Of a stretch of DNA of 64,000 nucleotides, positions 18,826 through 51,282 are shown in pieces. The DNA is from Pelobacter propionicus DSM 2379 (GTDB lineage: Bacteria > Desulfobacterota > Desulfuromonadia > Geobacterales > Pseudopelobacteraceae). The DNA lies in NCBI RefSeq assembly GCF_000015045.1, contig NC_008609.1:3647501-3711500 (forward strand), written 5' to 3'. A program made the position numbers and the translations under genes. Every line of letters starts with the position of its first letter. Positions within the stretch are counted from its first letter, which is position 1. The notes under the pieces were generated by a model, which saw only the letters and a list, made by a program, of their open reading frames with translations, ran no database searches and was not told the origin of the DNA.

Positions 18826-20019
18826 TTAGAAGGCCTTCTTAGCGAAACCGTTGTACTGATCAGCGGAAGAGTCAATCTTCTTGCCGTTCGCGTCGGTTCC
18901 CTTGAACGTGAACGTCAAACGGCTTGTGTCTATGGTCCCGTTCCCGTCGCTGTTCTGGGATATGGGGAAGTAAACGGTAGCCTCTTTGGTGGTCGGATTG
19001 TAGGTGACCTTGGTTGCCATGACAGCGGAGCTCCGGTCAGTGGCGCGGTAGAGGCCGTTATCGTACAACCCGGCAATGGCCCCTGAAGAGCGTCCCACCT
19101 TCCAGTTGGCAATATTGGTAACGGAATCAATATCCATTTCGGAATCAAACTTGAATGTCATGGAAAAGCGCACGCTCGAAGACGGCGTGACAAAGCTTGG
19201 GTCAAGCGCCAGTAGTGAAACAATTCCCATAGAGGTATTGAATGTACTCTGTTTTTGGTTTATGCCGATAATTTTGGGCTGATTGATGAGAACTTGCAGA
19301 TCACCGGCCAGATTACTGCCTTCACTGGTACCCAAAGCCTTCAGTTTCTTGATCATATCCTTTGTGGAGTCGGTCTTGCCCAAAGAGGCATAGGCGTTGC
19401 CCAGTTCGTACATCGTGGCTGCCGAATTCCTTTTCAGGGACAGGGCCTTGTTCAACTGCGTGACCGCCCCGCTGTAGTCTCCCTGCTTGTTAAGAGCAGC
19501 TCCCAGTCCATAATAGGCATTTCCATCATTGGGTGCGATTCTGATGGTCTTGCGAAACGACTCTTCAGCCTCTTTCGGCTTGTTCAGGTTGTTGAGCTGT
19601 AAAAGGCCGAGGGTATAAATGGGCAGGGAATTGGTGGGATCCGACTTGCTTCCTTTTTTCAGAACCTTCTCGGCCTCGGTGTAGTTCTTGTTATCGATGT
19701 ATATGCTGGCAAGATCGACATAGGTATCCCCCTGACTGCTGTCAATCTCAAGGGATATCTTGTAGGCTTTGATTGCCTCCGTTGATTTTCCCAGCTTGAG
19801 GTCAGCCTTGGCAAGATAGTTATATGCATTGATATTATCGGTATCGTATGCGGTAGCAAGGCGGAACGATGCGGCGGCAGCCTTGTAATTACCGTTCTGG
19901 TACTGGGTCAGGCCAGCGGACAGGGCATTATTGGCCGCGCTGTCTCGATAGGTAGTCTGGTTTATGGACAGGGCAGAAAACAGCTTTTCGGTACTGCTTG
20001 AAAGATAATCCCAATTCAT
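18826..20019 (-). CDS. TPR protein with C-terminal Ig-like domain
   Basis: A 397-residue protein with no signal peptide. Residues about 30-225 are tandem tetratricopeptide repeats (for example AYNYLAKADLKLGKSTEAIK and AYYGLGAALNKQGDYSGAV). The C-terminal part (about 255-390) is beta-rich, with a PSSSVRFSMTFKFDSEMD segment resembling bacterial Ig-like domains. A GGGAG precedes the ATG. A sigma-28-like sequence upstream and the nearby flagellin gene suggest a flagellum-linked role, perhaps as a scaffold for glycosylation; this is inference. Confidence 0.8.
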   Translation of the reverse strand: MNWDYLSSSTEKLFSALSINQTTYRDSAANNALSAGLTQYQNGNYKAAAASFRLATAYDTDNINAYNYLAKADLKLGKSTEAIKAYKISLEIDSSQGDTYVDLASIYIDNKNYTEAEKVLKKGSKSDPTNSLPIYTLGLLQLNNLNKPKEAEESFRKTIRIAPNDGNAYYGLGAALNKQGDYSGAVTQLNKALSLKRNSAATMYELGNAYASLGKTDSTKDMIKKLKALGTSEGSNLAGDLQVLINQPKIIGINQKQSTFNTSMGIVSLLALDPSFVTPSSSVRFSMTFKFDSEMDIDSVTNIANWKVGRSSGAIAGLYDNGLYRATDRSSAVMATKVTYNPTTKEATVYFPISQNSDGNGTIDTSRLTFTFKGTDANGKKIDSSADQYNGFAKKAF

Positions 20020-20075
20020 GGCAGGATCTCCCTATGAATTTGGTCGTCATACGGATTACTCGTATGGTACTGTTG

Positions 20076-20103
20076 CTATCGGTAGAAACAGCGCATCACT
20101 TGA
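20076..20103 (-). promoter_or_regulatory. Possible sigma-28 promoter of the TPR gene
   Basis: On the minus strand TCAAGT (from 20103) and ACCGATAG (20083-20076) resemble the flagellar consensus TAAAG and GCCGATAA, with 16 rather than 15 bases between. It lies about 57 bases upstream of the ATG, a similar distance to the flagellin promoter. Two mismatches make it tentative. Confidence 0.3.
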
Positions 20104-20161
20104 GCATTCTTTGTACCTGAATTTACAGGAAAATACCAAAAGAACCCCGGAAAGAACAACA

Positions 20162-23134
20162 ATGAATATCAGTTTGCATGAAACGTCTCGGGAAAACGAG
20201 AGTCATTTCAGCAGGGGGCTGCGACTGCACCGGATGGGGCGACTTCAGGATGCCCTGGCATGCTACGAACTGGCGCTTCAGGAGAGCTTTCGTCCCGACA
20301 TTCTGCTCAATATAGGGGCATTGCTTCATGACCTGGAGTTACACACCGAGGCTCTCCGTGTGTATGGGCGTGTTCTCGAACTCGCCCCAGACTCCGCCCC
20401 GACATACCATAACAGAGCAAACACGCTGCTTGCCCTGAACCGGTGCGAGGAGGCGATACAGGACTACCAGCGGGCGGCGGAGCTGATTCCGGACAATCCG
20501 GAACCGTTGGTCCCCATGGGTATGGCCTTTGAGCGACTGCTGAGTCACGACGAGGCAATGGCATGCTACGATGCTGCCCTGAGACGCGATCCAAATTGCG
20601 CCGAGGCACACTGGAACAGGGCACTTCTGCATTTGAAACTCGGCCGTTATGAAGAGGGATGGGAGGAATTCGAATGGCGCTGGAAGAAGAGGGGCTATAC
20701 GACGGCTTCGCGTGATTTCGACGTGCCTGCCTGGGGAGGCGAATCCCTTGAGCAACAGACCATCCTAGTGCATGCCGAACAGGCCTTTGGCGACACTATC
20801 CAGTTCGCCCGCTATCTTCCGCTCGTGGCGGAGCGGTGCGGGCGTCTCATTCTTGAGGTTCCTCTCCCTCTCTGCGAGCTCCTGCGTACGGTTTCCGGTG
20901 TGTCGGACGTGCTCCCGGTCGGTTCTCCGCTGCCTCCCTGTGACCGGCATGTACCGTTGATGAGTCTTCCCGGTGTGTTTAGTACAACCATAAAAACAAT
21001 TCCCCGCACTGTTCCCTATCTGTCTCCACCTTCGGAACGCATAAAGGCTTGGCAGAAATTGCTCGAACCGTATTCAACGTTCAAGGCCGGCGTTGTCTGG
21101 GCCGGGCGCAAGACACCCGACCCCCTGCGCTCGTGTCGACTGACAGACATTGCCCCTTTGGCAAGCATTCGGGGAATCACCTTTTTCTCCCTTCAAATGG
21201 ACGACGCGGCTTCCCAGTTCGCGTCACCTCCACCGGGAATGACTTGTGTCGACCTGACTGTCCATATCCACGATTTTGCCGATACGGCAGCCTTCATCGC
21301 TCAACTGGATCTAGTTATCACGATTGATACATCGGTGGCCCACCTGTCCGGCGCCCTGGGAAAACCGACGTTTGTACTCTTGCCATACGTCGCGGATTGG
21401 CGTTGGATGCTGAGACGCTCCGACTCTCCCTGGTATCCCACCATGCGACTGTTCCGTCAGAGCACGCGCGGCGACTGGCGTGAACCGATACAGAAATTGG
21501 TTGCCGCACTGGAAGAATCGCTGACTGAGTCAGGCAGATATGCACACAGCCGTGATACCGCTGTGCCACCCGGCGTCATGGAGAGTTACCATCGGGGAGT
21601 CGCCTTGCTGGATAGGCAACGATTTAAGGAGGCACATGCGCTGCTTTCGCAGGCTGTCCAGGAATCCCCCCGATGGAGCCCCCCCCTTGCTGCCCTGGGC
21701 TTATGCTGCTACCACCAGGGCAGTGCTGCCCGGGCGGAAGAACGGTTCCGTCAAGCTATAGGCTACGATGAAAACAACGTGGATGCCTACCGCTGTCTCG
21801 GGCTCCTACTAAACGAGCAGGAACGATATGAGGAAGCAGCCTTTCTGTTCGCGACGGCTCTCTCACTTGCCCCGAACGACTGCGATCTCAGGCGATTCCT
21901 AGGTGATGCGCACTTTGGTTTGGGCAATTATGCTGATGCCGCCCATTGGTACAACAATGCCCTTTCCAGACGCCCCGATGATGTGGAGGTTTTGCTGAAC
22001 CTTGGTGCGGCAAGTGAAGTATTGAACCGCTTTGACGTGGCGGAATGCTCGCTTCTGAGAGCAATCGAGTTATCCCCTGGGGATCACCGTGCGTATCTGA
22101 ACCTGGGAGGAGTCTTTCTCTCGCAGAACCGTCTGGAGCAGGCTGAACGGTACTTTCAAAAAGCTTTGGAATGCAAGCCGAACGATCCGACCGTGCGATG
22201 GAATTTGGCGCAGGTGTCATTAATCCGTGGAAACTACCAAAAGGGTTTTGAGGAGTTTGAAACGCGTTTCGACAAGAAGGGCCCGGTCAGGGTTGACCTG
22301 TGTGGTCTGCCGCTTTGGGACGGCTCTTCGCTTTCAGGAAAGACGTTGCTTGTCGTGACCGAGCAGGCCTTTGGAGATGCCCTGCAGTTCTGTCGCTTTT
22401 TGCCACTACTGGCCCAACAGGGAGGAAGGATTTTTCTGCGCAACAGCTTGAAACCGCTTGAAACGTTGCTGGCGACGCTGCCGTTTCTGGAACAAATGGT
22501 TCACCCCGGAGAAACAGTGCCCCATTGTGATTGGGCTGTGCCGATGATGTCGATTCCACGCCTCCTGGGCACCACCCTGGAAACGGTGCCGAGAAAGGTT
22601 CCCTATCTTTTTCCCGACAGTGGGAGGTGCAGTTGGTGGCGGGAGTCTCTGCGAGACGATCCCGGCTTCAAGGTCGGCATTACCTGGAAAGGACGGAGCA
22701 AGCCCGACCCCCGGCGCTCGGCCGACACGCACTGTTTTTCCCTTTTGCAGGACATCCGTGGGGTTTCCTGGTATTCGTTGCAGGTTGCGGAGCGAGGGGA
22801 ACAACAACCGACATTACCGACTGGTATACCACTGAGGGATTCGGCTCATCTGCTCAAGGATTTTTCCGACACGGCTGCGCTGATTACTCAGCTGGATCTG
22901 GTGATATCCATTGACAGCGCCGTTGCACACCTGGCAGGTTCCCTCGGCAGGCCGACCTGGCTCTTATTGCCCTTTTCTCCAGACTGGCGCTGGATGCTGG
23001 AGCGGGCCGACTCTCCCTGGTACCCCACCATGCGACTGTTCCGCCAGCCTTCCCCTGGAACATGGCATGCCGTATTCAGCGACCTGGCCTCGGCACTGAG
23101 GCAGGTGCTAACAACTCAGCAACGGAACTGTTGA
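20162..23134 (+). CDS. Internally duplicated TPR / GT9-like glycosyltransferase protein
   Basis: A 990-residue cytoplasmic protein made of two copies of one unit. Each copy has TPR repeats (about 15-185 and 510-690) followed by a glycosyltransferase-like domain of the ADP-heptose transferase (GT9/GT-B) kind (about 200-480 and 715-985). Matching landmarks are HAEQAFGDTIQFARYLPL with VTEQAFGDALQFCRFLPL, and WYPTMRLFRQ at the end of both. I start at 20162 because the TPR region begins there and GGAAAG lies upstream; 48 more in-frame codons are non-TPR. It overlaps the convergent GT41 gene by 19 bases. Probable role: adding sugars to flagellin or a glycan; acceptor unknown. Confidence 0.82.
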   Translation: MNISLHETSRENESHFSRGLRLHRMGRLQDALACYELALQESFRPDILLNIGALLHDLELHTEALRVYGRVLELAPDSAPTYHNRANTLLALNRCEEAIQDYQRAAELIPDNPEPLVPMGMAFERLLSHDEAMACYDAALRRDPNCAEAHWNRALLHLKLGRYEEGWEEFEWRWKKRGYTTASRDFDVPAWGGESLEQQTILVHAEQAFGDTIQFARYLPLVAERCGRLILEVPLPLCELLRTVSGVSDVLPVGSPLPPCDRHVPLMSLPGVFSTTIKTIPRTVPYLSPPSERIKAWQKLLEPYSTFKAGVVWAGRKTPDPLRSCRLTDIAPLASIRGITFFSLQMDDAASQFASPPPGMTCVDLTVHIHDFADTAAFIAQLDLVITIDTSVAHLSGALGKPTFVLLPYVADWRWMLRRSDSPWYPTMRLFRQSTRGDWREPIQKLVAALEESLTESGRYAHSRDTAVPPGVMESYHRGVALLDRQRFKEAHALLSQAVQESPRWSPPLAALGLCCYHQGSAARAEERFRQAIGYDENNVDAYRCLGLLLNEQERYEEAAFLFATALSLAPNDCDLRRFLGDAHFGLGNYADAAHWYNNALSRRPDDVEVLLNLGAASEVLNRFDVAECSLLRAIELSPGDHRAYLNLGGVFLSQNRLEQAERYFQKALECKPNDPTVRWNLAQVSLIRGNYQKGFEEFETRFDKKGPVRVDLCGLPLWDGSSLSGKTLLVVTEQAFGDALQFCRFLPLLAQQGGRIFLRNSLKPLETLLATLPFLEQMVHPGETVPHCDWAVPMMSIPRLLGTTLETVPRKVPYLFPDSGRCSWWRESLRDDPGFKVGITWKGRSKPDPRRSADTHCFSLLQDIRGVSWYSLQVAERGEQQPTLPTGIPLRDSAHLLKDFSDTAALITQLDLVISIDSAVAHLAGSLGRPTWLLLPFSPDWRWMLERADSPWYPTMRLFRQPSPGTWHAVFSDLASALRQVLTTQQRNC

Positions 23135-25017
23135 CACCATTTCCTCCACATCTGACGATAAGCACTCTCCATCTGGCGGGCAAAGCCCTGAAGATCCATC
23201 AGCGATGAATTCAGCATCATCTCCCGCAAATTCCATCGGTAGTGTTGCAGACGATCCGTATCTTTTGCCAGGGCAACGGCAATGGCCACAAAGTCATCAT
23301 CGCTTTCAGCAACCAACTCGGGAACCCCCACACTGGTCAGCAGACTGGCGCTGACCCGTGACGCATGGGTCCCCCCAGCCAGCGTGACAACCGGCACTCC
23401 CATCCAGAGAGACTCGCAGGTCGTGGTCGTGCCGCTGTAGGGATGCGAGTCGAGAGCTATGTCCCCCTCGGCCAAAGCATCAAGATGAGCGTGAACCGTC
23501 TCCGTCCTGTCCCTGATGATCAGGCGATCCGCCGTGATACCCCGCTGTGCAAACAAATCCAGCATCTCCATCCTGAATTCCACGTCATTGGCCAGGGCAC
23601 GATCCTTCAGGGCCAGGCGGGAGCCGGGAATCATCCGCAGCACCCTGCACCAGAGATCCAGAAGAGGACAGTTCAGTTTGGCAAAATTGTTGTAGGCGAC
23701 AAAGGTCACCGCTCCCCGCTCCAGCAAGGGAAGGGGCGAGAGCCCCGGTGAGTCGAGCGGAGGGTGGTAACAGATGAAACTTCCCGGCAACCGGAAAAGC
23801 TGTTCTGAGTACTGGCTTTCGGTCATGCCGGGGGGGTCAGCCACAGCATCGGTGATGCGGTAATCCATGGTAGGGAGACCGGTGGTGTTGGCGTACCCCA
23901 GCCAGGTCACCTGGACAGGGGCTGGTTTCTTGGCAAAGATCGGCAAACGGTTGCGGCGAGTGTGGCCTCCCAGGTCCACCAGGATGTCGATACGCTCCTC
24001 GCGGATCATCCTACAGACATCCATGTTATTTACGCCTCGGATCTGCCGCCAGGTACAAGAGCGTTGCCGGAACTGTTCCGTGATGTAATCCTCTTTTTCG
24101 ACATTTGAAAAGATATACACATCGACATCGTGCTGATCATGAAGCGTGAGTAGCGGTTCGATGAAGAAGGCTACCGGGTGGCTATAGAAGTCAGAGGAAA
24201 CATAGGCGATACGCAGCCTGCGTTCCGGATCTGGCTCGTTTTCAAACTGGCACCATGGCTCCCCCGCAGCACGACAGCACTTTTCAGCCCAGCGAAGATG
24301 CTCGCGGGATACGAAATCTGGGGGGTAACCTGTTGTACAGAGAAAATTCATCAGATAGTTGGAAAAATATGCTTCGTTCTGATCGGACAGAGTCAATGCC
24401 TGCAGATACCAGTCTACAGCCTCATCCGCTCTGCCAAGTCCCTTGAGAAAACCGGCAAGCCAGTTGCAATAATGATGCGACTGTGGGTCAAGCTGAACAG
24501 CGTTTCGCAGCGAACGCTCCGCCTCGGCCATGTGACAGCAGTCATTATGATACATCGCAAGCTGATAGTGGGCCTTGGCATCGTCAGGCTTCAAGCGTGT
24601 TGCACGCAACAACGCCTGACCTGCCTGTGCCTTGTCACCCATGTCAAGGCATGCCTGACCGAGATATAACCAAGCGGCACAATCCCGCGGATCATCTCCG
24701 ACCCGCTTGCGAAAGAAAGCCGTAACAGCATTCAGTCGATCCGCCTTGACATGGAAGGTAACAAGATCCGGATACAGCGTTTCGCAAGGCGTCTCATTAC
24801 AGAGTTCCATCATAATAGCCGCAGCCGCTGCAAAATCCCCCCGAGCAGCCAAAACATGAGCCAACATATAGCGAGCTTCCCTGTTTTCCGGCTCGAACAT
24901 AATGACTTTCTGGCAAATCTGCTCAGTTTCGCCCCATCGCCCGGCTTCAAGGTGAAAACGTGCCATATCAAGCAGTTTATACAGATATAAAACATTTGGT
25001 TCGGCTTGATTCCGCAT
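23116..25017 (-). CDS. TPR / O-GlcNAc-transferase-like glycosyltransferase (GT41)
   Basis: A 633-residue protein related to eukaryotic OGT and SPINDLY, which glycosylate serine and threonine. TPR repeats fill about residues 15-230. The catalytic region (about 265-620) has RIAYVSSDFYSHPVAFFIEP, DILVDLGGHTRRNRLPIFAKKPAP, VTWLGYANTTG, TFVAYNNFAKLNC and HPYSGTTTTCESLWMGVPVV, the hallmark UDP-sugar-site segments. It is divergent from fliC, so flagellin is the most likely acceptor (inference). AAGGAGG lies about eleven bases before the ATG. Confidence 0.9.
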   Translation of the reverse strand: MRNQAEPNVLYLYKLLDMARFHLEAGRWGETEQICQKVIMFEPENREARYMLAHVLAARGDFAAAAAIMMELCNETPCETLYPDLVTFHVKADRLNAVTAFFRKRVGDDPRDCAAWLYLGQACLDMGDKAQAGQALLRATRLKPDDAKAHYQLAMYHNDCCHMAEAERSLRNAVQLDPQSHHYCNWLAGFLKGLGRADEAVDWYLQALTLSDQNEAYFSNYLMNFLCTTGYPPDFVSREHLRWAEKCCRAAGEPWCQFENEPDPERRLRIAYVSSDFYSHPVAFFIEPLLTLHDQHDVDVYIFSNVEKEDYITEQFRQRSCTWRQIRGVNNMDVCRMIREERIDILVDLGGHTRRNRLPIFAKKPAPVQVTWLGYANTTGLPTMDYRITDAVADPPGMTESQYSEQLFRLPGSFICYHPPLDSPGLSPLPLLERGAVTFVAYNNFAKLNCPLLDLWCRVLRMIPGSRLALKDRALANDVEFRMEMLDLFAQRGITADRLIIRDRTETVHAHLDALAEGDIALDSHPYSGTTTTCESLWMGVPVVTLAGGTHASRVSASLLTSVGVPELVAESDDDFVAIAVALAKDTDRLQHYRWNLREMMLNSSLMDLQGFARQMESAYRQMWRKWCQQFRC

Positions 25018-25152: not shown

Positions 25153-26055
25153 ATGGCAAACTCAATTTCTCTCACCGCGGGCATGAGGAACAACCTGTTG
25201 GCTCTGCAGAACACCAACAAGCTGATGACCCAGACCCAGAACCGCCTTTCCACGGGCAAAAAAGTCAATTCGGCACTGGACAATCCGACCAACTTCTTTG
25301 CCGCCCAGGCACACACCAACCGTGCCAGCGACCTGACCAACCGTAAGGACGCCATGTCGGAGGCAGTACAGGGAGTAAACGCCGCTGATGCCGGTATTAC
25401 CGCCATCACCGCCCTGATCGAATCCGCACAGGGTATCGCTTCCGCCGCACTTGCCTCCGCCAGCACGACCGACCGCGCCAACTACGCCGTCACCTACAAT
25501 GAGTTGATGGGCCAGATCAACAAGCTGGCCAGCGACTCCGGTTATCGTGGTACCAACTTCCTGACCAATGATGACCTGACCGTGGAATTTGCCCCCGGTA
25601 CGGGCGATGCCACCCTCAAGATCCAAGGCTTCACCGCTACCTCAGTCGGTCTTTCTCTGCAGACGGTAGGTGTGGGAAGTACACATGGCACCGAATCTGC
25701 TGCTGCGACTAGTGCTGTCAACGACACTTATGGAACCGACACTGATTGGGATACCTCCACGATCGGCGACGGCAACAACGCTATCAAGAGCTCCTCAAAG
25801 CAGCTGGAAGACGCACTTTCCACTCTGCGCTCTGAGTCGTCCAAACTGTCCGCCAACCTGAGCATCGTCACCACCCGTCAGGACTTCACCGACAACATGA
25901 TCAACACCCTCAAGACCGGTGCCGACAACCTGACCCTGGCCGACACCAACGAAGAAGGCGCCAACATGCTGATGTTGCAGACACGCCAGAGCTTGGGTAC
26001 AACTTCTTTGAGCCTCGCTTCACAGGCGGCTCAGGCTGTGCTCCAGCTGTTCTAA
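25153..26055 (+). CDS. fliC: Flagellin
   Basis: The filament subunit, 300 residues. The conserved N-terminal D0/D1 region (about 1-140) has the typical MTQTQNRLSTGKKVNSALDNP and the C-terminal D1/D0 (about 215-300) ends ANMLMLQTRQSLGTTSLSLASQAAQAVLQLF in family style. The central variable region is short, which is common for filaments with a simple outer surface, and is rich in Ser/Thr/Gly, offering glycosylation sites. GGAG lies ahead of the ATG. It is driven by sigma-28 and followed by a hairpin. No fliW, csrA or fliD gene is in the window. Confidence 0.96.
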   Translation: MANSISLTAGMRNNLLALQNTNKLMTQTQNRLSTGKKVNSALDNPTNFFAAQAHTNRASDLTNRKDAMSEAVQGVNAADAGITAITALIESAQGIASAALASASTTDRANYAVTYNELMGQINKLASDSGYRGTNFLTNDDLTVEFAPGTGDATLKIQGFTATSVGLSLQTVGVGSTHGTESAAATSAVNDTYGTDTDWDTSTIGDGNNAIKSSSKQLEDALSTLRSESSKLSANLSIVTTRQDFTDNMINTLKTGADNLTLADTNEEGANMLMLQTRQSLGTTSLSLASQAAQAVLQLF

Positions 26056-26754: not shown

Positions 26755-27141
26755 ATGTCCCTGAAAATAGTCCTGAAAGCGCAGGAAAAGATTATCATCG
26801 GCAATGCTGTACTGCGTAACGGGAACCGGAATGCGGAACTGTATGTCGAGAATACCGTCCCGATTCTTCGACAGAAGGACATCTTGAAGGAGTGTGACGC
26901 GAATTCACCGGCGCGACGCGTTTACTTTGCCATACAATTGATGTATATTGACCCGGAAAAACGCCAGGCTCATGTGGAAGCTTTTTTTCAGCAGATTCAT
27001 GATATCATTGAGGCAGCGCCAAGCACGCGCAAATTCATAGTAAAACTGTGTGAGCAGGTTGCCGCAGCCCGGTTTTATCAGGCACTCAAGACGGCACGGG
27101 AACTTATCGATTACGAAGAGGAGATAACTGCACATGTCTGA
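26755..27141 (+). CDS. flbT: Flagellin regulator FlbT
   Basis: A 128-residue protein of the FlbT family, which in Caulobacter binds the 5' region of flagellin mRNA and limits its translation or stability until secretion is ready. The family pattern is visible: N-terminal MSLKIVLKAQEKIIIGNAVL, then ILRQKDIL, RRVYFAIQLMYID and a helical tail. It overlaps flaF by eight bases. AAGG lies before the ATG. Confidence 0.85.
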   Translation: MSLKIVLKAQEKIIIGNAVLRNGNRNAELYVENTVPILRQKDILKECDANSPARRVYFAIQLMYIDPEKRQAHVEAFFQQIHDIIEAAPSTRKFIVKLCEQVAAARFYQALKTARELIDYEEEITAHV

Positions 27142-43083: not shown

Positions 43084-43153
43084 TGTGTCGTGCCTCCATG
43101 CTTGCGCAAAAACCGGCCAATAAGCCATTTCTCGGAACTATCAATGATTCGAG

Positions 43154-44341
43154 TCATCGGTCGGGCAATGCATATATTACCAAGCCGGTACCACACCAGC
43201 CATGCATTCTCGTAAAAAATCGGTAGTTAGGAAGTGAGTTCATGCACCAGACCGGCAGTTCCCATATGCCTTGGCGGTTATGGTAGGCTGTAATTGCCAC
43301 TATGGGGCGACATCTCCTGAGAGTGTTTAAGCCTCCTCTCAAAGCGAAAAGCTCCCATCCTTCTACATGAACTTTCAAAAAAGTAGGAGATAGTTGTAGA
43401 TCATCAATGGAAACCGTAACCACCCCCTTTTCTCCCAAAGAAGAAAGTTGTGATGTGTAACCATGGCCCTCAAAGAAATGTTCTGAACACCTGCCATCAG
43501 AAATCACGACATCCAACACGTTTATTCTTCCCCGTACCGAATCCGGAAAATGTTTTAGAAATACCTTACTCAGTTCAGTCAAATTCTGACTGTCAGGTTC
43601 CACCGCGACAATGCTTTTGAATCTGCCATGAACGATATCGGCAAAAGAGACACAAACTTCACCATGATGGGCGCCGATATCGAGAAATGATTCGTTGCCA
43701 GTGAATTGGCCAACCACCTGCGGGATAAAATAACGATCCGCAGTTGTTACTGGCGCATCCGCAAAAACCCATTCTTGTCGCAGGCATCGCCAAGCAAGAA
43801 ATTGAAGGTGGTGTGCACGGGAAATATCATCCGCCCACCCAGAAAGGGCTTCATTTGTTCCCCTCATGTCCTTGTCAGTCAAGGCACCAGAAAACCATCC
43901 GTTTTTCAAGGGGTGCCGTCCCTGAAATACTTCAGTAATGTCGTAAAAGGGAACGATACATTCCCATCCCTGGGCCTGAAGGGATTGGAAAAGGGGGTTG
44001 AAGGGTATCGTCGAGATACACACAGCCAATAGCGAGTTTTTTTTGTCCGAGTTTGACACCTCACTGGGGGAGAGGACAGGAATGCCGGACCATTCGATAT
44101 CGTTCTCGTACATTTTCGAATTAGCATCTACGACATACAGGAAGGGAATACCGATGAAACGGAGATATTTCCCCGCCATTTTCCCAAGGTTGCCGGCCCC
44201 ATAAAGGATGAGAGGCCTGTCAAGTTCACGCCACGGTGCTGCGGGGACTTCTGCTGCTATTTCTTTCAAGAGAGAACAGGCGGTTGCTGTATCTGGGGGC
44301 CTTTCGAATGTAATGCCAATGCGTCCAACCGATTTATCCAT
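43154..44341 (-). CDS. FkbM-family methyltransferase with N-terminal Rossmann-like module
   Basis: A 395-residue protein. Residues about 42-125 form a nucleotide-binding-like module (LILYGAGNLGKMAGKYLRF, VVDANS). The FkbM methyltransferase domain (about 205-385) has the SAM-binding FLDIGAHHGEVCVSFA and VAVEPDSQNLTEL, then LKVHVEGWELFALRGG. FkbM enzymes often O-methylate sugars. The ATG at 44341 has GAGG eight bases upstream, although it overlaps the GT4 gene by 76 bases; a TTG at 44269 would reduce this to four. Confidence 0.85.
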   Translation of the reverse strand: MDKSVGRIGITFERPPDTATACSLLKEIAAEVPAAPWRELDRPLILYGAGNLGKMAGKYLRFIGIPFLYVVDANSKMYENDIEWSGIPVLSPSEVSNSDKKNSLLAVCISTIPFNPLFQSLQAQGWECIVPFYDITEVFQGRHPLKNGWFSGALTDKDMRGTNEALSGWADDISRAHHLQFLAWRCLRQEWVFADAPVTTADRYFIPQVVGQFTGNESFLDIGAHHGEVCVSFADIVHGRFKSIVAVEPDSQNLTELSKVFLKHFPDSVRGRINVLDVVISDGRCSEHFFEGHGYTSQLSSLGEKGVVTVSIDDLQLSPTFLKVHVEGWELFALRGGLNTLRRCRPIVAITAYHNRQGIWELPVWCMNSLPNYRFFTRMHGWCGTGLVIYALPDR

Positions 44342-45603
44342 CGGGAAAACCTCGTATCTGCGGGAAATAAATTTCGATAGTGGAAAATAGAACCTTTCGT
44401 TTTTTCCAGCATCCCGGGCAGGGCGAACTCATCTATCGCACAATCCGTCAATGCGTCCGTGAAATATCCCGGGGTTCGCTGTATGGAGAGAAACCATTCA
44501 GAAGGAGCGTACCCGAAAATATCGCCAAACCGAACGACAGATTTGTCGGTCGACTTGATCGCATCGTATTGAACGGCAAATGCGTCCGTCATCTTACTGG
44601 CAGTGAAACGACGGCGTACCATCGTTTGCGCGTTCATGGATAGCCTTGCCCTTTCAGCGGGATTGTCTGCAAGCCATTCGATTGCGTTGGCGAATTGCCT
44701 TGGGTTTCCAACGATTAGCCCAGTTATATTGTCATCTACCAGGCACTTTTCCGCAAGATTGTCCAGCACTACTGGAACGACCCCCATTGCCATAGCCTCC
44801 AGCAGTGCATTTTCGGTAGTACCGTAGTGTAGGGGATTCAGAATATATGGAAACACATTTATTTCCGAAAGTTCCCGAGCTATATCGGTTACATAACCGC
44901 GAAATTCGAGCATGTCGGGCCGGTTTGCACGTCGGGACTGTTCCTCAAGCATTTCCCGGTTTACCATGTCGCCGACCAACCTTACTGTGAACCCACGAAG
45001 AGAGACAGCCGCGAGAAACTCCACAAAGCGGGGGTGAAGTTTCGCGAAATTCAGGCTGCCAATCATTCCAGCCCTCAAGGGTTCGCAAGGGGAGCGCACG
45101 GGAGCAGTCAAATCATCGAACCCACCGCAGCTGTATATGACCCCCAGTCGTTTAACCGCCTTTAAGGGGAGTGTCGAGGTCTCGACTGATTCAAGAGAAC
45201 AGGGAGATGTAAAAACACAAGAATGGGCGGCCGTCATAAGTTTTTGCGGTATGACTGGAGTATAAAGACCAGATACATGGCACCAGACGAGCAGCCGCAT
45301 GGGGGGGAGCGGCCCACGGCAGAGCGCAGCAGGAATTGCTGGGTGCCCCCACCATTCGAGCTGGACAATGTCGGCGTTCCTGATTCTTTCCGAAAGCGTC
45401 TCAGGTGTGGGGTTAATTATCACCGGACATCCGGCGTCTAAAAGCTTCTCTAGGAACTGGGACTTTTCTGGTATCTCCAGGCAGACGATTTCATGACAGA
45501 TGCCCGAATCAGGCGGCGTGTTGAGGATCAAACCGTTCAAGGCCTTGCCGATGCCGCCGCCCAGATGTGCGGTCAGGTGGAGTACGGTCAGGGAGTCGCT
45601 CAT
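44266..45603 (-). CDS. GT4-type glycosyltransferase
   Basis: A 445-residue GT-B glycosyltransferase of the group 1 (GT4) kind. The N-terminal domain starts LTVLHLTAHLGGGIGKALNGL. The C-terminal donor domain has VRLVGDMVNRE, LEFRGYVTD and the nucleotide-sugar motif region YGTTENALLEAMAMGVVPVVLDN with the expected glutamates. The ATG at 45603 overlaps the upstream radical SAM stop (ATGA), which fixes the start. The last 90 residues are poorly conserved. Donor unknown. Confidence 0.85.
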   Translation of the reverse strand: MSDSLTVLHLTAHLGGGIGKALNGLILNTPPDSGICHEIVCLEIPEKSQFLEKLLDAGCPVIINPTPETLSERIRNADIVQLEWWGHPAIPAALCRGPLPPMRLLVWCHVSGLYTPVIPQKLMTAAHSCVFTSPCSLESVETSTLPLKAVKRLGVIYSCGGFDDLTAPVRSPCEPLRAGMIGSLNFAKLHPRFVEFLAAVSLRGFTVRLVGDMVNREMLEEQSRRANRPDMLEFRGYVTDIARELSEINVFPYILNPLHYGTTENALLEAMAMGVVPVVLDNLAEKCLVDDNITGLIVGNPRQFANAIEWLADNPAERARLSMNAQTMVRRRFTASKMTDAFAVQYDAIKSTDKSVVRFGDIFGYAPSEWFLSIQRTPGYFTDALTDCAIDEFALPGMLEKTKGSIFHYRNLFPADTRFSRWINRLDALALHSKGPQIQQPPVLS

Positions 45604-46616
45604 ATCCGTTCCGCCAACAGCCGTTTGAGAAGTACCGCCGCATAGGGGTCGATATCGTCCGGGAGACAATGGGTGAGTTGGCCACAGGCGCCACATACCA
45701 GATTGCTTTTGCGCTTGCCTTCAAGATGTTCCACGCGGTGGCGGAACAATTGATCCCCCTGCCAGGTCTCCTTGAGACTCTCGCGCCTCAGGTCTCCCAC
45801 AACCAGTTTACGCGCCCAGTCAAGAAAGCAGAGACTCACTGTTCCATCGGAATTGACCGACAGGGAATAGAAGATGTAAGGGCAGGTCACTACTTCGCCG
45901 AGGGGTTGGTCATAGATGCCCCGGTCAAGAGCGACGTTCAGCCGGTCCGCTACGTCGAACTCCGGCCAGCAGGGTGCCACGTTCTCAATGAAGATTCGGT
46001 CGGCGTAATCGCCGAAGATTCGGAAGAACCTCTCCTTGTCCTCTTCTGAAAGGAAATCTCCGGCTATCTTGACGAGAACCTCGCACTGCCCCTTCATCTC
46101 GTAGAGCTTCCGTATATTGTCAACAAAAGTATCGAAGTGGACCCTGACACCGGTGAACTCGAAAAATTGATCATCAGAGAGCCCGTTTACGGAGATATTA
46201 ATGCGGTCGATACCAGCGTCCAACACCGGTTTCATCCGTTCAGGGTCCAACAGGGAGCCGTTGGTTGTGGTGTCAACGGAACGGGCCACGCCGCTCTCTT
46301 TTGCAATGCGTACCATGTCAGCGAAGTTCGGGTTCAGGAGGGGTTCGCCGTCCTTGTATAGCCGGAGCACCTTGAGCGGCTCATCGAATTCCTTCAGGTC
46401 GTCGATGATTTTTCGGTACAGGCCGAGATCCATGGTCCCCTGCCAGCGCCCCGATTCACGGATCAGCGTGGCGTCACCGCTGGGGCAGAACTTGCATCGG
46501 AAGTTGCAGGCACTGGACGGGTCGACGAACAGTACAAAGGGGGTGGCAAGGGGAATAACTTCTTCGAGCCTGATTCGGCCTTCCTGATTGATGCGGGGTT
46601 TTATCTGTGCTTTCAT
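45600..46616 (-). CDS. Radical SAM/SPASM protein
   Basis: A 338-residue protein closely similar in layout to the 42-43 kb gene. It has CNFRCKFC near residue 38, LRLYKDGEPLLNPNF, then INISVNGLSDDQFFEFTG (the other protein has IRISLNGLSREDFLEYTG), and C-terminal cysteines in VTCPY, VSLCFLD and LVCGACGQLTHC. The ATG at 46616 has only a weak GGA site. The two look like paralogues and may act on related substrates. Confidence 0.83.
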   Translation of the reverse strand: MKAQIKPRINQEGRIRLEEVIPLATPFVLFVDPSSACNFRCKFCPSGDATLIRESGRWQGTMDLGLYRKIIDDLKEFDEPLKVLRLYKDGEPLLNPNFADMVRIAKESGVARSVDTTTNGSLLDPERMKPVLDAGIDRINISVNGLSDDQFFEFTGVRVHFDTFVDNIRKLYEMKGQCEVLVKIAGDFLSEEDKERFFRIFGDYADRIFIENVAPCWPEFDVADRLNVALDRGIYDQPLGEVVTCPYIFYSLSVNSDGTVSLCFLDWARKLVVGDLRRESLKETWQGDQLFRHRVEHLEGKRKSNLVCGACGQLTHCLPDDIDPYAAVLLKRLLAERI

Positions 46617-46647
46617 GTTTATTGTCCAAGTGACAACGGTTGTCTGC

Positions 46648-47502
46648 TCAATGAGAAGAAGGAGCAAGGGTTTTTGACATTTTTGTGGCATCTCCCCAGA
46701 AAGCCATCGGCTCATGGGCGGGATAGGGATAGTGGCCGAGGTTAAGGCGAATAGCGGCGCCACGTACGGAAATACGTTCCTCCACAAGCCGTCTGACCGA
46801 TATGGGGGTACCGCTGCAGATATTCAGTATGCCGTCAAACTGCGGACGTTCCACAAGTTCGGCAAGATGCCCGGCAACGGTTTCTACCGCCAAGTAATCC
46901 CGTAACTGTTCTCCGTCTGACATATTGAAGACCTTATCGCCTCTTTCGATTGAAGCGTCAAGTTGCGCCAGGAGACTGCAGGGATTTTGCCCCGTGCCGT
47001 ACATATAAAAAGGCCTTGCCCATTGGAGAGTAAACTGAATATCTTTTTGCAGCATTTCCAGTGCACGGCGGAGAATATCCTTTGAGAGGGCGTAGGGCGT
47101 TACGGGATGGGTATCCATCTCCTCAGACAGAGGACCGTTGCGCAAGCCGTATTCAAAGCAGGTGCCCGTAACCAGCACCTGCCGTACACCCAATTGAATG
47201 AGCAGCTTGAGAAACTGAAAGCTGGCGGGGAAGGCTGCTTCCAGGTGCCTCATGGAATAATAGTCGGGCAGGTACGGCCATGCCAAGTGCATGACAGCGT
47301 CGAAGGAGTCGGGAGGTACTTTGAGAACGAACGCCGGCTCGAGAATATCGCCGCATATGATATCTGTATCGCGAAGCAGTGGACATGATAGGATTTTCGT
47401 CTGATCGCGGACGACAACAGTGACATTGTGCCCCCTCTCAATGAGGCGGCGGATTACATGGCTTCCCACGAAACCGGTTGCGCCGGTCAGGAGTATCTTC
47501 AT
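46648..47502 (-). CDS. NAD-dependent epimerase/reductase (AscF-like 4-ketoreductase candidate)
   Basis: A 284-residue extended short-chain dehydrogenase. It has the NAD(P)-binding GATGFVGSHVIRRL at the N terminus and the catalytic YALSK near residue 140. The start at 47502 is fixed by an ATGA overlap with the 3,5-epimerase gene. By position in a CDP-dideoxyhexose operon it could be the final 4-keto reductase, as AscF is in the ascarylose pathway; that role is inferred from context. An NDP-sugar 4-epimerase is the alternative. Confidence 0.82.
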   Translation of the reverse strand: MKILLTGATGFVGSHVIRRLIERGHNVTVVVRDQTKILSCPLLRDTDIICGDILEPAFVLKVPPDSFDAVMHLAWPYLPDYYSMRHLEAAFPASFQFLKLLIQLGVRQVLVTGTCFEYGLRNGPLSEEMDTHPVTPYALSKDILRRALEMLQKDIQFTLQWARPFYMYGTGQNPCSLLAQLDASIERGDKVFNMSDGEQLRDYLAVETVAGHLAELVERPQFDGILNICSGTPISVRRLVEERISVRGAAIRLNLGHYPYPAHEPMAFWGDATKMSKTLAPSSH

Positions 47503-48062
47503 TGTCTTTTCGCACAATCGTCAAAGGAAAAAGGAGATGAAAAGTCAATAAGAGGCGGGAGGAGGCCATCCTTTGTGGATATGATCGGCGTGCTGGCGGG
47601 CCAGGCAATTCCGGCAGAGTCCCAGCGGATTCCGGCATCATGGTCAGGAGCGTAGACAGAAGAAACCTTGTACATCATTGTGGCTGACTCGCTGGTGACG
47701 TAAAACCCATGGGCGAGCCCCCGGGGGATGTAGAGCATGTTTCCTTTTTCGGCACTCAGTTCGAGCATAATATGATCCCCATATGTGGGAGAGCCTTTTC
47801 GTAGGTCCACGACCGCATCCAGTACCGTGCCCGCGGTGCAGTATACCAACTTGTCGTGCTGATGGGGGGGGAGTTGGAAGTGCAACCCTCGAAGCACTCC
47901 CCGCCTGGAAACTGAGTAGAATTCTTCTTTCCAGTCGGTGCAACAGCCGTGCGACTCGAACGTTTTTTCGTTGTAGGTTTTGACGAACCTGCCACGTTCG
48001 TCCTGGAAACAAACAGGAACGATCTCGAGGCAACCTGAAATTCTTGTATGTATAAAAGTCAT
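47499..48062 (-). CDS. dTDP-4-dehydrorhamnose 3,5-epimerase-like protein (RmlC/AscE type)
   Basis: A 187-residue cupin sugar epimerase. Family motifs are clear: ETDERGRF-type opening ([18 protein letters not shown]), the catalytic-histidine segment [17 protein letters not shown] and [18 protein letters not shown], which carries the active-site tyrosine. It overlaps genes on both sides by four bases. No dTDP-sugar synthesis genes are present, and it sits after rfbH, so it more likely acts as the CDP-sugar 5-epimerase (AscE-like) than in rhamnose synthesis (inference). Confidence 0.88.
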
Positions 48063-49420
48063 GTCGATCCGCCACGCTTGATGAATGCCCGGATGGTATC
48101 AAGCATATACGCAATCATTTCCTCTGTCATACCCGGATAGACCCCAATCCAAAATGTATCGCGCATGATGCGTTCGGTTATCGCCAGTTCCCCAACAACC
48201 CTGTATCCCGTTCCGCCTGCGCGCATCTCATCAAAACAGGGATGCTTGATCAGATTACCGGCAAACAGCATCCGTGTTTGGATACCCCTTGACTCCAGGT
48301 AATTGACCAGTTCATCTCGATTGAAGGCCGTATTTTCACGGATTGTCAGCAGAAAACCGAACCAGGAGGGATCAGAGTCTCTTGTGGTGCCGGGGAGGAT
48401 CAGGCTGTCTTCCATGTCGCTGAGCCCCTCACGCAGTTTGCACCAGTTCTTTTTGCGCGCATCGATGAACGTGGGAAGTTTTTCAAGCTGTGCACAACCA
48501 ATGGCGGCCTGCATATCGGTTAACTTAAGATTATAACCGAAATGGGAATAGACATACTTGTGATCGTAGCCCGGAGGAAGCTCTCCGTACTGTTTCGCAA
48601 AACGTTTACCACAGGTATTGTCTTGGCCAGAGGGACACCAGCAATCGCGTCCCCAATCGCGGAACGATTCCACCAAGCGCTTCAGGTGCGGGTCATTGGT
48701 GTAGACGGCTCCTCCCTCACCCATGGTCATGTGGTGCGGAGGGTAGAAACTGGATGTGGCAAGGTCGCCGAAACTCCCTGTGAAGCCCCAGACGCCATCG
48801 AGGCAGTATCGTGACCCTAGTGCGTCGCAGTTGTCTTCGATCAGCCAGAGTCCGTGCCGGACGCAGAACCCGCTGACCTTCGCTATGTCAAACGGATTAC
48901 CCAAAGTATGGGCTACCATGACCGCCTTGGTTCTGGAAGAAAGAGCGGCTTCGAGCATAGCCGTATCTATGTTGTATTCGGGCAGGGTTACGTCGACGAA
49001 TACAGGTACTGCCCCGTATTGGATGATTGGCGAAACTGTGGTGGGAAAACCAGCGGCCACTGTTACAATCTCGTCTCCCGGCCTGATGCGCCGCTCTTTC
49101 AGGCTTGGTGAGGTAAGGGCCATGAACGCCAGCAGGTTTGCCGATGAGCCAGAGTTGGTCAGCATGGTGTGCCTGACGCCGACGAAAGAGGAAAATTCCC
49201 GTTCAAATCGTGCGGCGAATCGTCCGCTGGTCAGCCAGAAATCCAGCGCAGAGTCAACCAGATTGGCAATTTCCTTTTCATCAAAGACGCGTGCGGCGTA
49301 AGGAATGCGCTCGCCGGGACGGTACGATTTTAGTGCAGCATGGGCGTGACTGTAGTGGGCAATGGCAGCACGAATCGCTTCGCTTCGCAATGCCTGTTCC
49401 TGTGTATCGTTGCTGTTCAC
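48059..49420 (-). CDS. rfbH: CDP-4-dehydro-6-deoxyglucose 3-dehydratase (E1)
   Basis: The iron-sulfur, PMP-dependent enzyme that removes the C3 hydroxyl in 3,6-dideoxyhexose synthesis. The 453-residue product has the aminotransferase fold, with the internal-aldimine lysine replaced by histidine in [15 protein letters not shown], as is diagnostic for E1. The cluster cysteines are visible as [11 protein letters not shown] and in EDNCDALG. Start is a GTG with GGGGAG just upstream. It needs a partner reductase (E3), which is not encoded in this window. Confidence 0.95.
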
Positions 49421-49447
49421 ATGGCTCCCCTTCTGTGGAAAATGGTG

Positions 49448-50524
49448 CTACAGAAAGGCCTGGATCTGTTCAAGGCTTTTTGACCGCATATCGTGTCCCG
49501 AACGATAGGCACGGGTCCAGTCGACTATGGATTGCAGCGCCTGCTCTAGGCTCCAGGATGGTTTCCAGTTCAATCTGATTTTAGCCTTGGAACAGTCCAG
49601 CTTCAGATAGCAAGCTTCGTGGGGGCACTGTGAACTTTCCCGGGACTCATAGAGCGCATTGTTACCCCAAAGGTCGCAGAGTCGATCCACGACCCATGCA
49701 ACTGGTCTGGCATCGGAGTCGAGCGGGCCGAAGTTCCAACTCTCGGAAAATGCGAGGCCGTCTACGTAAAGCCGCTGCGCAAGCATCAGGTAGCCTCGCA
49801 GTGGCTCCAGCACGTGCTGCCAGGGGCGGATGGCATGGGGGTTGCGGATGTTAATCGGTTCACCGGCAAAAAGGGAACGCATGCAGTCGGGGATCAGCCT
49901 GTCTTTTGCCCAGTCTCCACCGCCGATGACGTTGCCTGCTCGTACGGTGGCAATTGCCACTCCATGCTGGGAATACGTGTTGAGATTAAAAAAGGAGGAG
50001 CGGTAGGCGGACGTGACTAGTTCGGAGCAGGCTTTGCTGCTGGAATAGGGGTCGTATCCTCCCAGTGAATCGTTTTCACGGTATCCCCACACCCATTCCC
50101 GGTTCTCATAGCATTTGTCGGTGGTTACATTTACGACGGCCCTGACCGAGGGGGTCTGGCGAACCGCCTCAAGCAGGTGCACCGTCCCCATGATGTTTGT
50201 GGAATAGGTTTCCACGGGATTGCTGTATGAATCAAGCACCAGCGGCTGTGCTGCCAAGTGGAAGACAATTTCGGGACGTGCGGTCTGCATGGCCGATACG
50301 AGTCGCTCGTAATCGCGCACATCCGCGCTATGGGAAGTCAGTAACTCCCCAATTCGGGCCAGGTCATAGAGATTGGGTGTGGTTGTAGGAGGGAGTGCGT
50401 AACCGGTCACCTGGGCCCCCATGCTGGTGAGCCAGAGACTGAACCAGCTTCCCTTGAAGCCGGTGTGGCCGGTCAAAAAAACCGATTTGCCATTCCAGAA
50501 CTCTCGGTTCACCAGATTTTCCAT
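49448..50524 (-). CDS. rfbG: CDP-glucose 4,6-dehydratase
   Basis: A 358-residue extended SDR enzyme that forms CDP-4-keto-6-deoxyglucose from CDP-glucose. The NAD-binding motif is GHTGFKGSWFSLWL near residue 15, with NVTTDKCYENREW near 130 and the catalytic Tyr-Lys pair in YDPYSSSK near 155. The C terminus matches RfbG (CHEACYLKLDCSKA-type end). I start at 50524 by length and by the short overlap with rfbF (16 bases); the frame stays open 46 codons upstream inside rfbF. Confidence 0.95.
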   Translation of the reverse strand: MENLVNREFWNGKSVFLTGHTGFKGSWFSLWLTSMGAQVTGYALPPTTTPNLYDLARIGELLTSHSADVRDYERLVSAMQTARPEIVFHLAAQPLVLDSYSNPVETYSTNIMGTVHLLEAVRQTPSVRAVVNVTTDKCYENREWVWGYRENDSLGGYDPYSSSKACSELVTSAYRSSFFNLNTYSQHGVAIATVRAGNVIGGGDWAKDRLIPDCMRSLFAGEPINIRNPHAIRPWQHVLEPLRGYLMLAQRLYVDGLAFSESWNFGPLDSDARPVAWVVDRLCDLWGNNALYESRESSQCPHEACYLKLDCSKAKIRLNWKPSWSLEQALQSIVDWTRAYRSGHDMRSKSLEQIQAFL

Positions 50525-51282
50525 TGCGCCTGCCCCGACTGCCAAAGCCTTTCCAACTCTTCCTTGTCGCGCAGAGCGTCCATGCACTTCCAGAATCCAT
50601 GGTGCCTGTAGGCCATCAGTTGCGAATCGCGAGCCAGGTTTTCGATCGGGTCCTGTTCCCACATCTTGTGATCTGCATCATCCGGCAAGTACGAGAACAC
50701 CTCAGGTTTCAAGACAAAGAAACCACCGTTGATCCAGCCACCATTGTCCGGCTTTTCCTGGAAACTGTTGACTAGTCCGTTGTTGTCGAGCCCCAAGAGG
50801 CCGAATCTGCCGGCCGGCTGAACCGAAGTCATGGTTGCGATTTTTCCATGGGAATGGTGGAAGGAGATCAAATCATGCAGGTTAACATCCGCAAGACCAT
50901 CGCCATAGGTGAGCATAAAATCCTCTTTTCCAATATACTGTTCAGCCCGTTTAAGGCGGCCGGCAGTCAGGGTGTTCAGGCCGGTTTCAACAAGCGTAAC
51001 ACGGAACTTTTCAGAATTTGACTGGTGCACTTCATAGCTGTTGGTCTGAAGGTTAAAAGTTACATCTGAATTGTACATATAGTAGTGCATGAAATACTGC
51101 TTGATAAGGAAACTTTTATAACCCAGGCATATTACGAAGTCGTTAAACCCTTGCGTCTCAAATATCTTCATCAAATGCCAGAGTATTGGCTTTTCGCCAA
51201 TTTCAATCATCGGTTTTGGCTTGAGATATGATTCTTCGGAAATCCGCGTTCCCATGCCCCCAGCAAAAATGACGACTTTCAT
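50509..51282 (-). CDS. rfbF: Glucose-1-phosphate cytidylyltransferase
   Basis: A 257-residue nucleotidyltransferase making CDP-glucose from glucose-1-phosphate and CTP, the first step to 3,6-dideoxyhexoses. The signature GGMGTRISEESYLKPKPM is at the N terminus, with GEKPILWHLMKIF following and LTYGDGLADVNL near 130. AAAGG lies six bases before the ATG at 51282. It is the first gene of the sugar operon, which runs rfbF-rfbG-rfbH-epimerase-reductase. Confidence 0.96.
   Translation of the reverse strand: MKVVIFAGGMGTRISEESYLKPKPMIEIGEKPILWHLMKIFETQGFNDFVICLGYKSFLIKQYFMHYYMYNSDVTFNLQTNSYEVHQSNSEKFRVTLVETGLNTLTAGRLKRAEQYIGKEDFMLTYGDGLADVNLHDLISFHHSHGKIATMTSVQPAGRFGLLGLDNNGLVNSFQEKPDNGGWINGGFFVLKPEVFSYLPDDADHKMWEQDPIENLARDSQLMAYRHHGFWKCMDALRDKEELERLWQSGQAQWKIW

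What the first reader, a model, noticed from the sequence alone, without database searches (positions are those of the whole stretch)
18826..51282. Flagellin-centred glycan island: candidate new glycosylation system
One continuous region joins a sigma-28 flagellin gene, GT41, GT9-like, GT2 and GT4 enzymes, TPR scaffolds, five radical SAM proteins, FkbM methyltransferase, HAD protein and a CDP-dideoxyhexose pathway. The two directions and the FlbT/FlaF unit suggest that flagellin is one acceptor. The combination of OGT-like transfer with cobalamin and SPASM radical chemistry is not a described flagellin pathway.
Basis: inference. Interest (0 to 1): 0.75.

Follow-up and report, generated by a model that had tools for sequence, protein, structure and literature searches.

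The report
Flagellin sugar-coating locus, mixed cassette
A bacterium's only detected flagellin gene sits among unusual repeat-fused sugar-attaching enzymes that recur beside flagellin genes in related bacteria, joined here to a probably acquired sugar-making cassette with five radical enzymes whose link to flagellin is suggestive but unproven.

Summary
In detail: every named gene type is present and the flagellin has an exact sigma-28-type site. Two parts must be kept apart. (1) The left module (18.8-32.5 kb: TPR proteins, TPR-GT9-like, TPR-GT41, flagellin-ORF219-FlbT-FlaF, giant GT2x3-TPR) is flagellin-linked. A strong GT2x3-TPR match occurs in 16 of 22 FlbT-bearing genomes but 2 of 373 others, and within 15 kb of FlbT in 15 of those 16. 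In the family, 22-23 of 25 other FlbT loci carry a TPR-glycosyltransferase within 10 kb, against 0 of 30 control regions. (2) The right cassette (32.7-51.3 kb: five radical SAM proteins, FkbM, HAD-like, GT4, CDP-3,6-dideoxyhexose genes) is variable and partly AT-rich. Its largest radical SAM protein has a close orthologue in no other of 60 family genomes; elsewhere it occurs in five genomes with no flagellin match, once in an O-antigen-type cluster. Yet parts of the cassette lie at the flagellin loci of G404 and G423, and glycosyltransferase-radical SAM fusions recur at flagellin loci. GT41, FkbM and CDP-deoxysugar genes in flagellin islands are published; my searches found no report of radical SAM there. 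Verdict: new variant of a known kind; flagellin acceptor likely, radical chemistry on its glycan possible.

The parts
18826..20019 (-). TPR protein with a conserved C-terminal domain without Pfam match; relatives at several FlbT loci
   Evidence: >=150 bits at 8 of 25 other family FlbT loci, 0 of 30 controls
20018..23134 (+). TPR protein with two GT9-like units (1038 aa)
   Evidence: >=200 bits near FlbT in 17 of 25 other family loci, 0 of 30 controls
23116..25017 (-). TPR-GT41 (SPINDLY-like) glycosyltransferase
   Evidence: PF13844 197 bits; SPINDLY 7y4i 374 bits; only GT41 found in the genome
25068..25093 (+). sigma-28-type promoter, TAAA-N15-GCCGATA
25153..26055 (+). flagellin, the only one found in the genome
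26086..26745 (+). ORF219: conserved unnamed protein, possibly a flagellin D1-like paralogue without D0
26755..27141 (+). FlbT
   Evidence: PF07378 152 bits
27134..27517 (+). FlaF, flagellin chaperone type
   Evidence: PF07309 119 bits
27524..31369 (-). giant GT2 x3 + TPR protein (1281 aa), convergent with the flagellin operon
31317..32507 (-). TPR protein (396 aa)
   Evidence: >=150 bits at 9 of 25 other family FlbT loci, 0 of 30 controls
32668..36801 (-). GT2 - B12-radical SAM - GT2 - GT2 fusion (1377 aa)
   Evidence: orthologues
36829..38496 (-). B12-binding radical SAM protein
   Evidence: 33% identical relative at the flagellin locus of G404
38535..40715 (-). HAD-like protein (726 aa), no Pfam match
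40781..42052 (-). radical SAM protein whose N-terminal domain resembles that of the FkbM protein
42049..43128 (-). radical SAM-SPASM protein
   Evidence: relatives at flagellin loci of G404 and G423
43154..44341 (-). FkbM methyltransferase
44266..45696 (-). GT4 glycosyltransferase
   Evidence: 56% identical relative at the flagellin locus of G423
45600..46787 (-). radical SAM-SPASM protein
46648..47517 (-). NAD-dependent epimerase/reductase
   Evidence: 56% identical relative at the flagellin locus of G423
47499..48062 (-). RmlC-type epimerase
   Evidence: TIGR01221 175 bits, cut-off 156
48059..49420 (-). RfbH, CDP-4-keto-6-deoxyglucose 3-dehydrase
   Evidence: 728 bits, cut-off 423; solved E1 3bcx 517 bits
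49448..50662 (-). CDP-glucose 4,6-dehydratase (real start probably about 50524)
   Evidence: TIGR02622 511 bits, cut-off 278
50509..51327 (-). glucose-1-phosphate cytidylyltransferase (likely ATG at 51282)
   Evidence: TIGR02623 374 bits, cut-off 300

Best explanation
This is the flagellin locus of a Geobacterales-type bacterium, organised as a flagellin glycosylation island. Sigma-28 reads the single flagellin gene with ORF219, FlbT and FlaF (site shown; transcription inferred). FlaF and FlbT escort and regulate flagellin as in Caulobacter, since no FliS was found (inferred from family and precedent). In the cytoplasm the TPR parts of the GT41, GT9-like and giant GT2 proteins grip flagellin, and their catalytic parts place and extend sugars on it before export (inferred from FlmG and from linkage). 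The right-hand run of 13 co-directional genes is an exchangeable cassette: it makes a CDP-3,6-dideoxyhexose (pathway read from family matches; RmlC plus reductase suggest an L-sugar such as ascarylose; no E3 reductase seen in the island), which GT4 and GT2 units add, while FkbM, HAD-like and radical SAM enzymes tailor the sugar. That the cassette serves flagellin rather than another surface glycan is the weakest step.
For: GT2x3-TPR: strong match (>=229 bits, a cut-off I set at the gap after seeing the scores) in 16 of 22 FlbT+ and 2 of 373 FlbT- genomes (Fisher 9e-22, not corrected for kinship); within 15 kb of FlbT in 15 of 16; one of the two FlbT- cases, G129, also has flagellin beside it. 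GT41: in 11 of 22 FlbT+ and 28 of 373 FlbT- genomes; on the FlbT contig within 10 kb in 8 of the 11. Family test: with equal 20-kb windows, 22 of 25 other FlbT loci have a TPR-GT match of >=200 bits (23 at >=190), 0 of 30 control regions even at >=100 bits; NDP-sugar genes within 20 kb in 9 of 25 against 0 of 30. 19 of the 80 best GT2x3-TPR relatives in named genomes have a flagellin-locus gene in the held flank; the 10 of these checked are true flagellins by Pfam, in several phyla. No FliS. None of the island proteins is a flippase, polymerase or initiating transferase, whereas a separate cluster at C3:3736-3755 kb has Bac_transf, Wzy_C, Wzx and Wzz. G423 and G404 hold parts of the right cassette at their flagellin loci.
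Against: No glycan was observed. 61 of the 80 GT2x3-TPR relatives show no flagellin in the held flank; many flanks are short and my flagellin model scores ordinary flagellins low. At E <= 1e-10, 251 of 395 genomes have some match to the GT2-TPR query, so the association holds only for the strong group. 6 of 22 FlbT+ genomes lack the strong match. The orthologue group of the 1377-aa radical SAM protein lies partly in genomes without a flagellin match, G125 in an O-antigen-type cluster, and in no other family genome of 60, same-genus G396 included. Radical SAM enrichment at family flagellin loci is weak: 17 genes in 947 kb against 3 in 590 kb, p 0.02, with models trained partly on flagellin-locus proteins. 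G425 and G445 have no TPR-GT match near FlbT.
Confidence: 0.62

Rival explanations
1. Two unrelated neighbours: the left module glycosylates flagellin, while the right cassette (CDP-dideoxyhexose, radical SAM, FkbM, GT4) makes a surface polysaccharide or LPS sugar and merely landed beside it.
For: Orthologues of the 1377-aa protein in five genomes with no PF00669 match; O-antigen-type setting in G125; only 1 of 60 family genomes, the own one, has it; lower G+C; the genome's own O-antigen cluster also holds a B12-radical SAM gene.
Against: The genome has a separate Wzx/Wzy cluster; the 13 cassette genes run in one direction with gaps of at most 65 bases or overlaps, then 160 bases to TPR396 and GT2x3-TPR (coordinates); related GT4, epimerase, SPASM and FkbM genes lie at the flagellin locus of G423, RfbG, RfbH, B12-radical SAM and SPASM relatives at that of G404.
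Confidence: 0.3
2. The radical SAM-SPASM enzymes modify the flagellin polypeptide itself (for example C-methylation or a crosslink), not its sugars.
For: SPASM proteins often act on peptides (recalled); many NCBIfam hits are maturase-type models, all far below cut-off.
Against: Relatives at the loci of G404 and G423 lie among nucleotide-sugar and glycosyltransferase genes, and five radical SAM proteins at other flagellin loci are fused to glycosyltransferases and/or TPR; peptide-maturase resemblance is generic for SPASM.
Confidence: 0.08
3. The TPR-glycosyltransferases act on another acceptor and sit beside flagellin only because the locus is an insertion hotspot.
For: No biochemical link; the family's GT content at the locus varies greatly.
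Against: Specific co-occurrence with FlbT across the phylum and, in many genomes, convergent placement right after FlaF; 0 of 30 control regions; FlmG precedent (PMC7591256).
Confidence: 0.1

Closest known systems
Flagellin glycosylation islands of Enterobacteriaceae (PMC4875605, passages read)
   Same: SPINDLY-family GT41 or GT2, FkbM methyltransferases and nucleotide-sugar genes, in some CDP-4-keto-6-deoxyglucose genes, beside flagellin
   Different: There each strain's island is said to hold glycosyltransferases of a single family, and the text does not contain the word 'radical'; here GT41, GT9-like, GT2 and GT4 occur together with TPR scaffolds, FlbT/FlaF and five radical SAM proteins
Caulobacter FlmG (PMC7591256, passages and section 10 read)
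   Same: N-terminal TPR plus C-terminal GT-B transferase, flagellin with FlaF and FlbT
   Different: FlmG needs pseudaminic acid; no NeuB-type match among the island proteins; FlmG sequence not compared here
SPINDLY / O-GlcNAc transferase (GT41)
   Same: The GT41 catalytic region aligns with that of SPINDLY; K447 aligns with SPY K665 and H280 is in the conserved SDFxSH stretch (residue roles recalled)
   Different: Donor and acceptor unknown
Geobacillus flagellin glycosylation islands (PMC5109656, passages read)
   Same: Variable sugar cassettes with FkbM at the flagellin locus
   Different: Text has no 'radical', 'TPR' or 'tetratricopeptide'

Membership tests
Flagellin glycosylation island | glycosyltransferase and sugar genes at the flagellin gene | tested here: met
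Flagellin glycosylation island | linkage to flagellin conserved in relatives | tested here: met
   left module; right cassette only in part
Flagellin glycosylation island | flagellin carries glycan | not testable with these tools
   needs mass spectrometry
GT41 / SPINDLY | GT41 domain over the curated cut-off, TPR in front | tested here: met
   PF13844 197 bits against 25
FlmG class | TPR N-terminal part plus GT-B C-terminal part beside a FlaF/FlbT flagellin system | tested here: met
   architecture only, FlmG sequence not compared
FlmG class | pseudaminic-acid donor genes nearby | tested here: not met
   no NeuB-type match among island proteins; rest of genome not searched
O-antigen Wzx/Wzy cluster | flippase, polymerase and initiating transferase in the cluster | tested here: not met
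   none; present elsewhere, C3:3736-3755 kb
CDP-3,6-dideoxyhexose pathway | cytidylyltransferase, 4,6-dehydratase and 3-dehydrase | tested here: met
   RfbH has [14 protein letters not shown] like the solved E1
CDP-3,6-dideoxyhexose pathway | E3 reductase | not tested
   none seen in the island; genome not searched for it

The most novel reading that the evidence does not exclude
FlbT/FlaF-type flagellins of Desulfobacterota, and other flagellins of several phyla, are glycosylated by a so far unnamed set of giant TPR-glycosyltransferases, and radical SAM enzymes, repeatedly fused to these transferases or TPR scaffolds in different orders (window, G362, G122, G411, a Nitrospinae and a Desulfarculales genome), rework the flagellin glycan in place: radical chemistry as a normal part of filament glycosylation in anaerobes.
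Probability: 0.3. Interest if true: 0.68.

Novelty: new variant of a known kind. Interest (0 to 1): 0.5.

Why it matters
It gives a testable case for how TPR-borne transferases choose flagellin, in a chaperone system (FlaF/FlbT) outside Alphaproteobacteria, and points to an enzyme family, GT2x3-TPR, that tracks this flagellin type across a phylum. If the radical SAM part acts on the same glycan, radical chemistry would be a new route to diversity of filament sugars in anaerobes.

Tried and rejected
Rejected: a second flagellin (it is FlgL). Rejected: mere presence of radical SAM genes as proof of linkage; 5 of the first 20 control regions also hold one, and the family test gives only p 0.02. 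Rejected: a strict OGT label; SPINDLY is nearer. Not proof of homology: the Geobacterales-only ORF219 subset scores 15.9 against the flagellin profile, inside the range of 30 shuffles; the wider family without the flagellin-like L090 member scores 39.0 against a shuffle maximum of 21.5 and 20.1 and 17.7 for reversed profiles. A profile search of ORF219 against PDB sequences listed no flagellin. Foldseek gave no ORF219 match at E <= 0.001, and Z about 10 for helical bundles may mean only a common arrangement. The N-terminal domain shared by the radical SAM protein 40781-42052 and the FkbM protein (blastp E 2e-7 in a three-sequence search) was not significant for the HAD-like protein; the follow-up HMM in that script failed on empty input. 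No structure was predicted for the HAD-like or 18826-20019 proteins. Paper searches that returned no paper; one search matched 1,229 papers, and none of the 12 listed holds 'flagellin glycosylation'.

Limits of the controls: the 25 family loci are 5 from the phylum sample and 20 that I chose from the FlbT hits, mainly for room on the contig, not at random; flagellin windows were up to 40 kb and controls 20 kb, which evens out. The first 20 control regions come from 13 of the 22 FlbT genomes; one gave a 24-bit hit to the GT41 protein. Control places were picked by me.
Full report
What is there. The window is G000:C3:3647501-3711500 of a 4,241,119-base genome in three contigs; C3 is 4,008,000 bases. 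These sizes match those I recall for Pelobacter propionicus DSM 2379; the name comes from no call. ORFs and domain scans confirm every item in the finding. From left to right: TPR protein; TPR-GT9-like double unit; TPR-GT41; flagellin, ORF219, FlbT, FlaF; then, all on the minus strand, GT2x3-TPR, TPR396, a GT2-B12-radical-SAM-GT2-GT2 fusion, B12-radical SAM, HAD-like, radical SAM, radical SAM-SPASM, FkbM, GT4, radical SAM-SPASM, epimerase, RmlC, RfbH, CDP-glucose dehydratase, cytidylyltransferase. The flagellin has an exact TAAA-N15-GCCGATA site that ends 60 bases before its start (expected 0.01 per window), and a FliA gene is present elsewhere. The other Flagellin_N hit in the genome is FlgL beside FlgK, so this is the only flagellin found. 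No FliS was found, and the only FliD_N hit is below cut-off (22.2 against 24.8 bits); Caulobacter, one of the 14 control genomes, does not ring in those two searches either.

The left module follows flagellin. FlbT occurs in 22 of 395 genomes sampled across the phylum and GT41 in 39 of 395; 11 hold both, and in 8 of these the GT41 lies on the FlbT contig within 10 kb (in G046, G122 and G320 it is on another contig). The GT2-TPR part of the 1281-aa protein matches something in 251 of 395 genomes at E <= 1e-10, but a top group stands apart (>=229 bits in 18 genomes; the next rows are 204 and 165, in two genomes of that group, then 161). Of the 18 genomes, 16 are FlbT-positive and 2 FlbT-negative (Fisher 9e-22, cut-off set after seeing the scores, kinship not corrected). 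In 15 of the 16 it is within 15 kb of FlbT; G098 is the exception. In G129 (no FlbT) an ordinary flagellin lies beside it; in G070 flagellin is on another contig. Twenty control regions from 13 of the 22 FlbT genomes held no GT2x3-TPR, TPR-GT9, TPR396 or 18826-type match. Within the family, FlbT occurs in 45 of 60 genomes. I examined 25 of the 44 others (5, 20 chosen by me and fetched). Within 20 kb of FlbT: TPR-GT9 in 17, GT41 in 14, GT2x3-TPR in 11 (each >=200 bits), NDP-sugar genes in 9; all 0 of 30 in family control regions of 20 kb (10 regions, 20). With equal 20-kb windows, any TPR-GT occurs in 22 of 25 at >=200 bits and 23 at >=190, and in 0 of 30 controls even at >=100. G425 and G445 had none. 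In named genomes, 19 of the 80 best GT2x3-TPR relatives had a flagellin-locus gene in the held flank. I checked 10 of these by Pfam and all 10 are flagellins over cut-off, among them Nitrospinae, Neomarinimicrobiota, Bacteroidetes, Gemmatimonadetes, Eremiobacterota, Krumholzibacteriota and Sericytochromatia records; 61 of the 80 showed none, many on short contigs.

The right cassette is another matter. The B12-radical-SAM domain of the 1377-aa protein has close orthologues (54-72% identity, >=445 bits, then a fall to 176) in 11 other genomes of 395 (372 of 395 have some match at E <= 1e-10). Five of these (G274, G185, G135, G125, G247) have no Flagellin_N match. In G125 it sits in an O-antigen-type cluster with RfbF, RfbG, RmlC and what I read as a Wzt-like ATPase (that label is from sequence inspection). 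In G032 it is a 2769-aa fusion beside RfbF, RfbG, RmlC and an epimerase, with Flagellin_N hits on other contigs. In the family only the own genome of 60 has it at E <= 1e-60, and the same-genus G396 has flagellin, GT41, GT2x3-TPR and four proteins like the FkbM protein, but no radical SAM hit in the 40 kb examined. Its neighbours at 36.8-43.1 kb have 41% G+C. So this part looks like an acquired surface-sugar cassette.

Yet it is not a random neighbour. At the flagellin locus of G423 lie a GT4 (56% identity over 424 residues), an epimerase (56%), three SPASM proteins (30-36%) and an FkbM protein (26%); at that of G404, RfbG (57% over 230, cut by the stretch end), RfbH (69%), B12-radical SAM (33%) and SPASM (36%) relatives, with NeuB- and TPP-enzyme genes and four radical SAM genes in all. 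Radical SAM domains fused to glycosyltransferases and/or TPR occur within about 10 kb of flagellin in G362 (1684 aa, SPASM), G122 (1192 aa, B12), G411 (1288 aa, B12), Nitrospinae L123 (1840 aa) and Desulfarculales L167 (934 aa), in different domain orders; no radical SAM ORF over 700 aa was seen in the 20 first or the 30 family control regions (10 regions are in both sets). Against this, fused orthologues of the window protein also occur away from flagellin (G044, G139, G257, G270), and the rate of radical SAM genes at family flagellin loci is only modestly raised (17 in 947 kb against 3 in 590 kb, p 0.02, own genome left out, models trained partly on flagellin-locus proteins). The genome has a separate cluster with initiating transferase, Wzx, Wzy and Wzz at C3:3736-3755 kb, itself with a B12-radical SAM gene, and a second Wzy_C gene at C3:2653805.

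Mechanism. Shown: gene content, promoter motif, family membership, linkage. Inferred: cytoplasmic O-glycosylation of flagellin by TPR-GTs, with TPR as acceptor reader as shown for FlmG in Caulobacter (PMC7591256); donor sugars from the CDP route, ending in a 3,6-dideoxyhexose (RfbH aligned with the solved E1 enzyme at 517 bits), perhaps ascarylose-like given RmlC and a reductase (recalled pathway); tailoring by FkbM and radical SAM enzymes. The GT41 keeps K447 and H280 in the donor-site region (roles recalled).

Known or new. GT41 (SPINDLY), FkbM and CDP-4-keto-6-deoxyglucose genes in flagellin islands are in print (PMC4875605, passages). In the open PMC library I found no paper joining flagellin glycosylation islands with radical SAM (one search gave two papers, one checked by passages, one seen in the listing), nor FlbT and FlaF with Deltaproteobacteria. 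The locus is therefore a new variant of a known kind, with an open and testable extra claim.

Noticed in passing
26086-26745: ORF219: unnamed protein with a relative at 17 of 22 FlbT loci (own included), plus G271 where the gene at the same place resembles flagellin; the model resembles flagellin D1 and the FliS co-chaperone HP1076, at a level that helical bundles can reach by chance. Possibly a flagellin mimic that works with FlbT or FlaF.
   Followed up: partly
18826-20019: TPR protein with a conserved C-terminal domain; in G098, G246 and G407 a FlaF gene follows its relative, in G098 as a second FlaF. With FliD not detected over cut-off, a filament-associated role is conceivable.
   Followed up: partly
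G000:C3 (genome): No FliS, and FliD only below cut-off: the filament module resembles the Caulobacter type, inside a Geobacterales-type genome.
   Followed up: partly
L230:2078-5409: At the flagellin locus of G404, a NeuB-type synthase and a TPP enzyme lie with RfbH and four radical SAM genes: a different sugar cassette at the same place.
   Followed up: no
40781-42052 and 43154-44341: The radical SAM protein and the FkbM methyltransferase share a similar N-terminal domain, perhaps a common docking or substrate part.
   Followed up: partly
57657-58832: IS4-family transposase (233 bits, cut-off 115) about 6 kb beyond the cassette.
   Followed up: no
L219:1416-19834: Separate Wzx/Wzy-type cluster about 25-43 kb beyond the window end, with its own B12-radical SAM gene.
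   Followed up: partly
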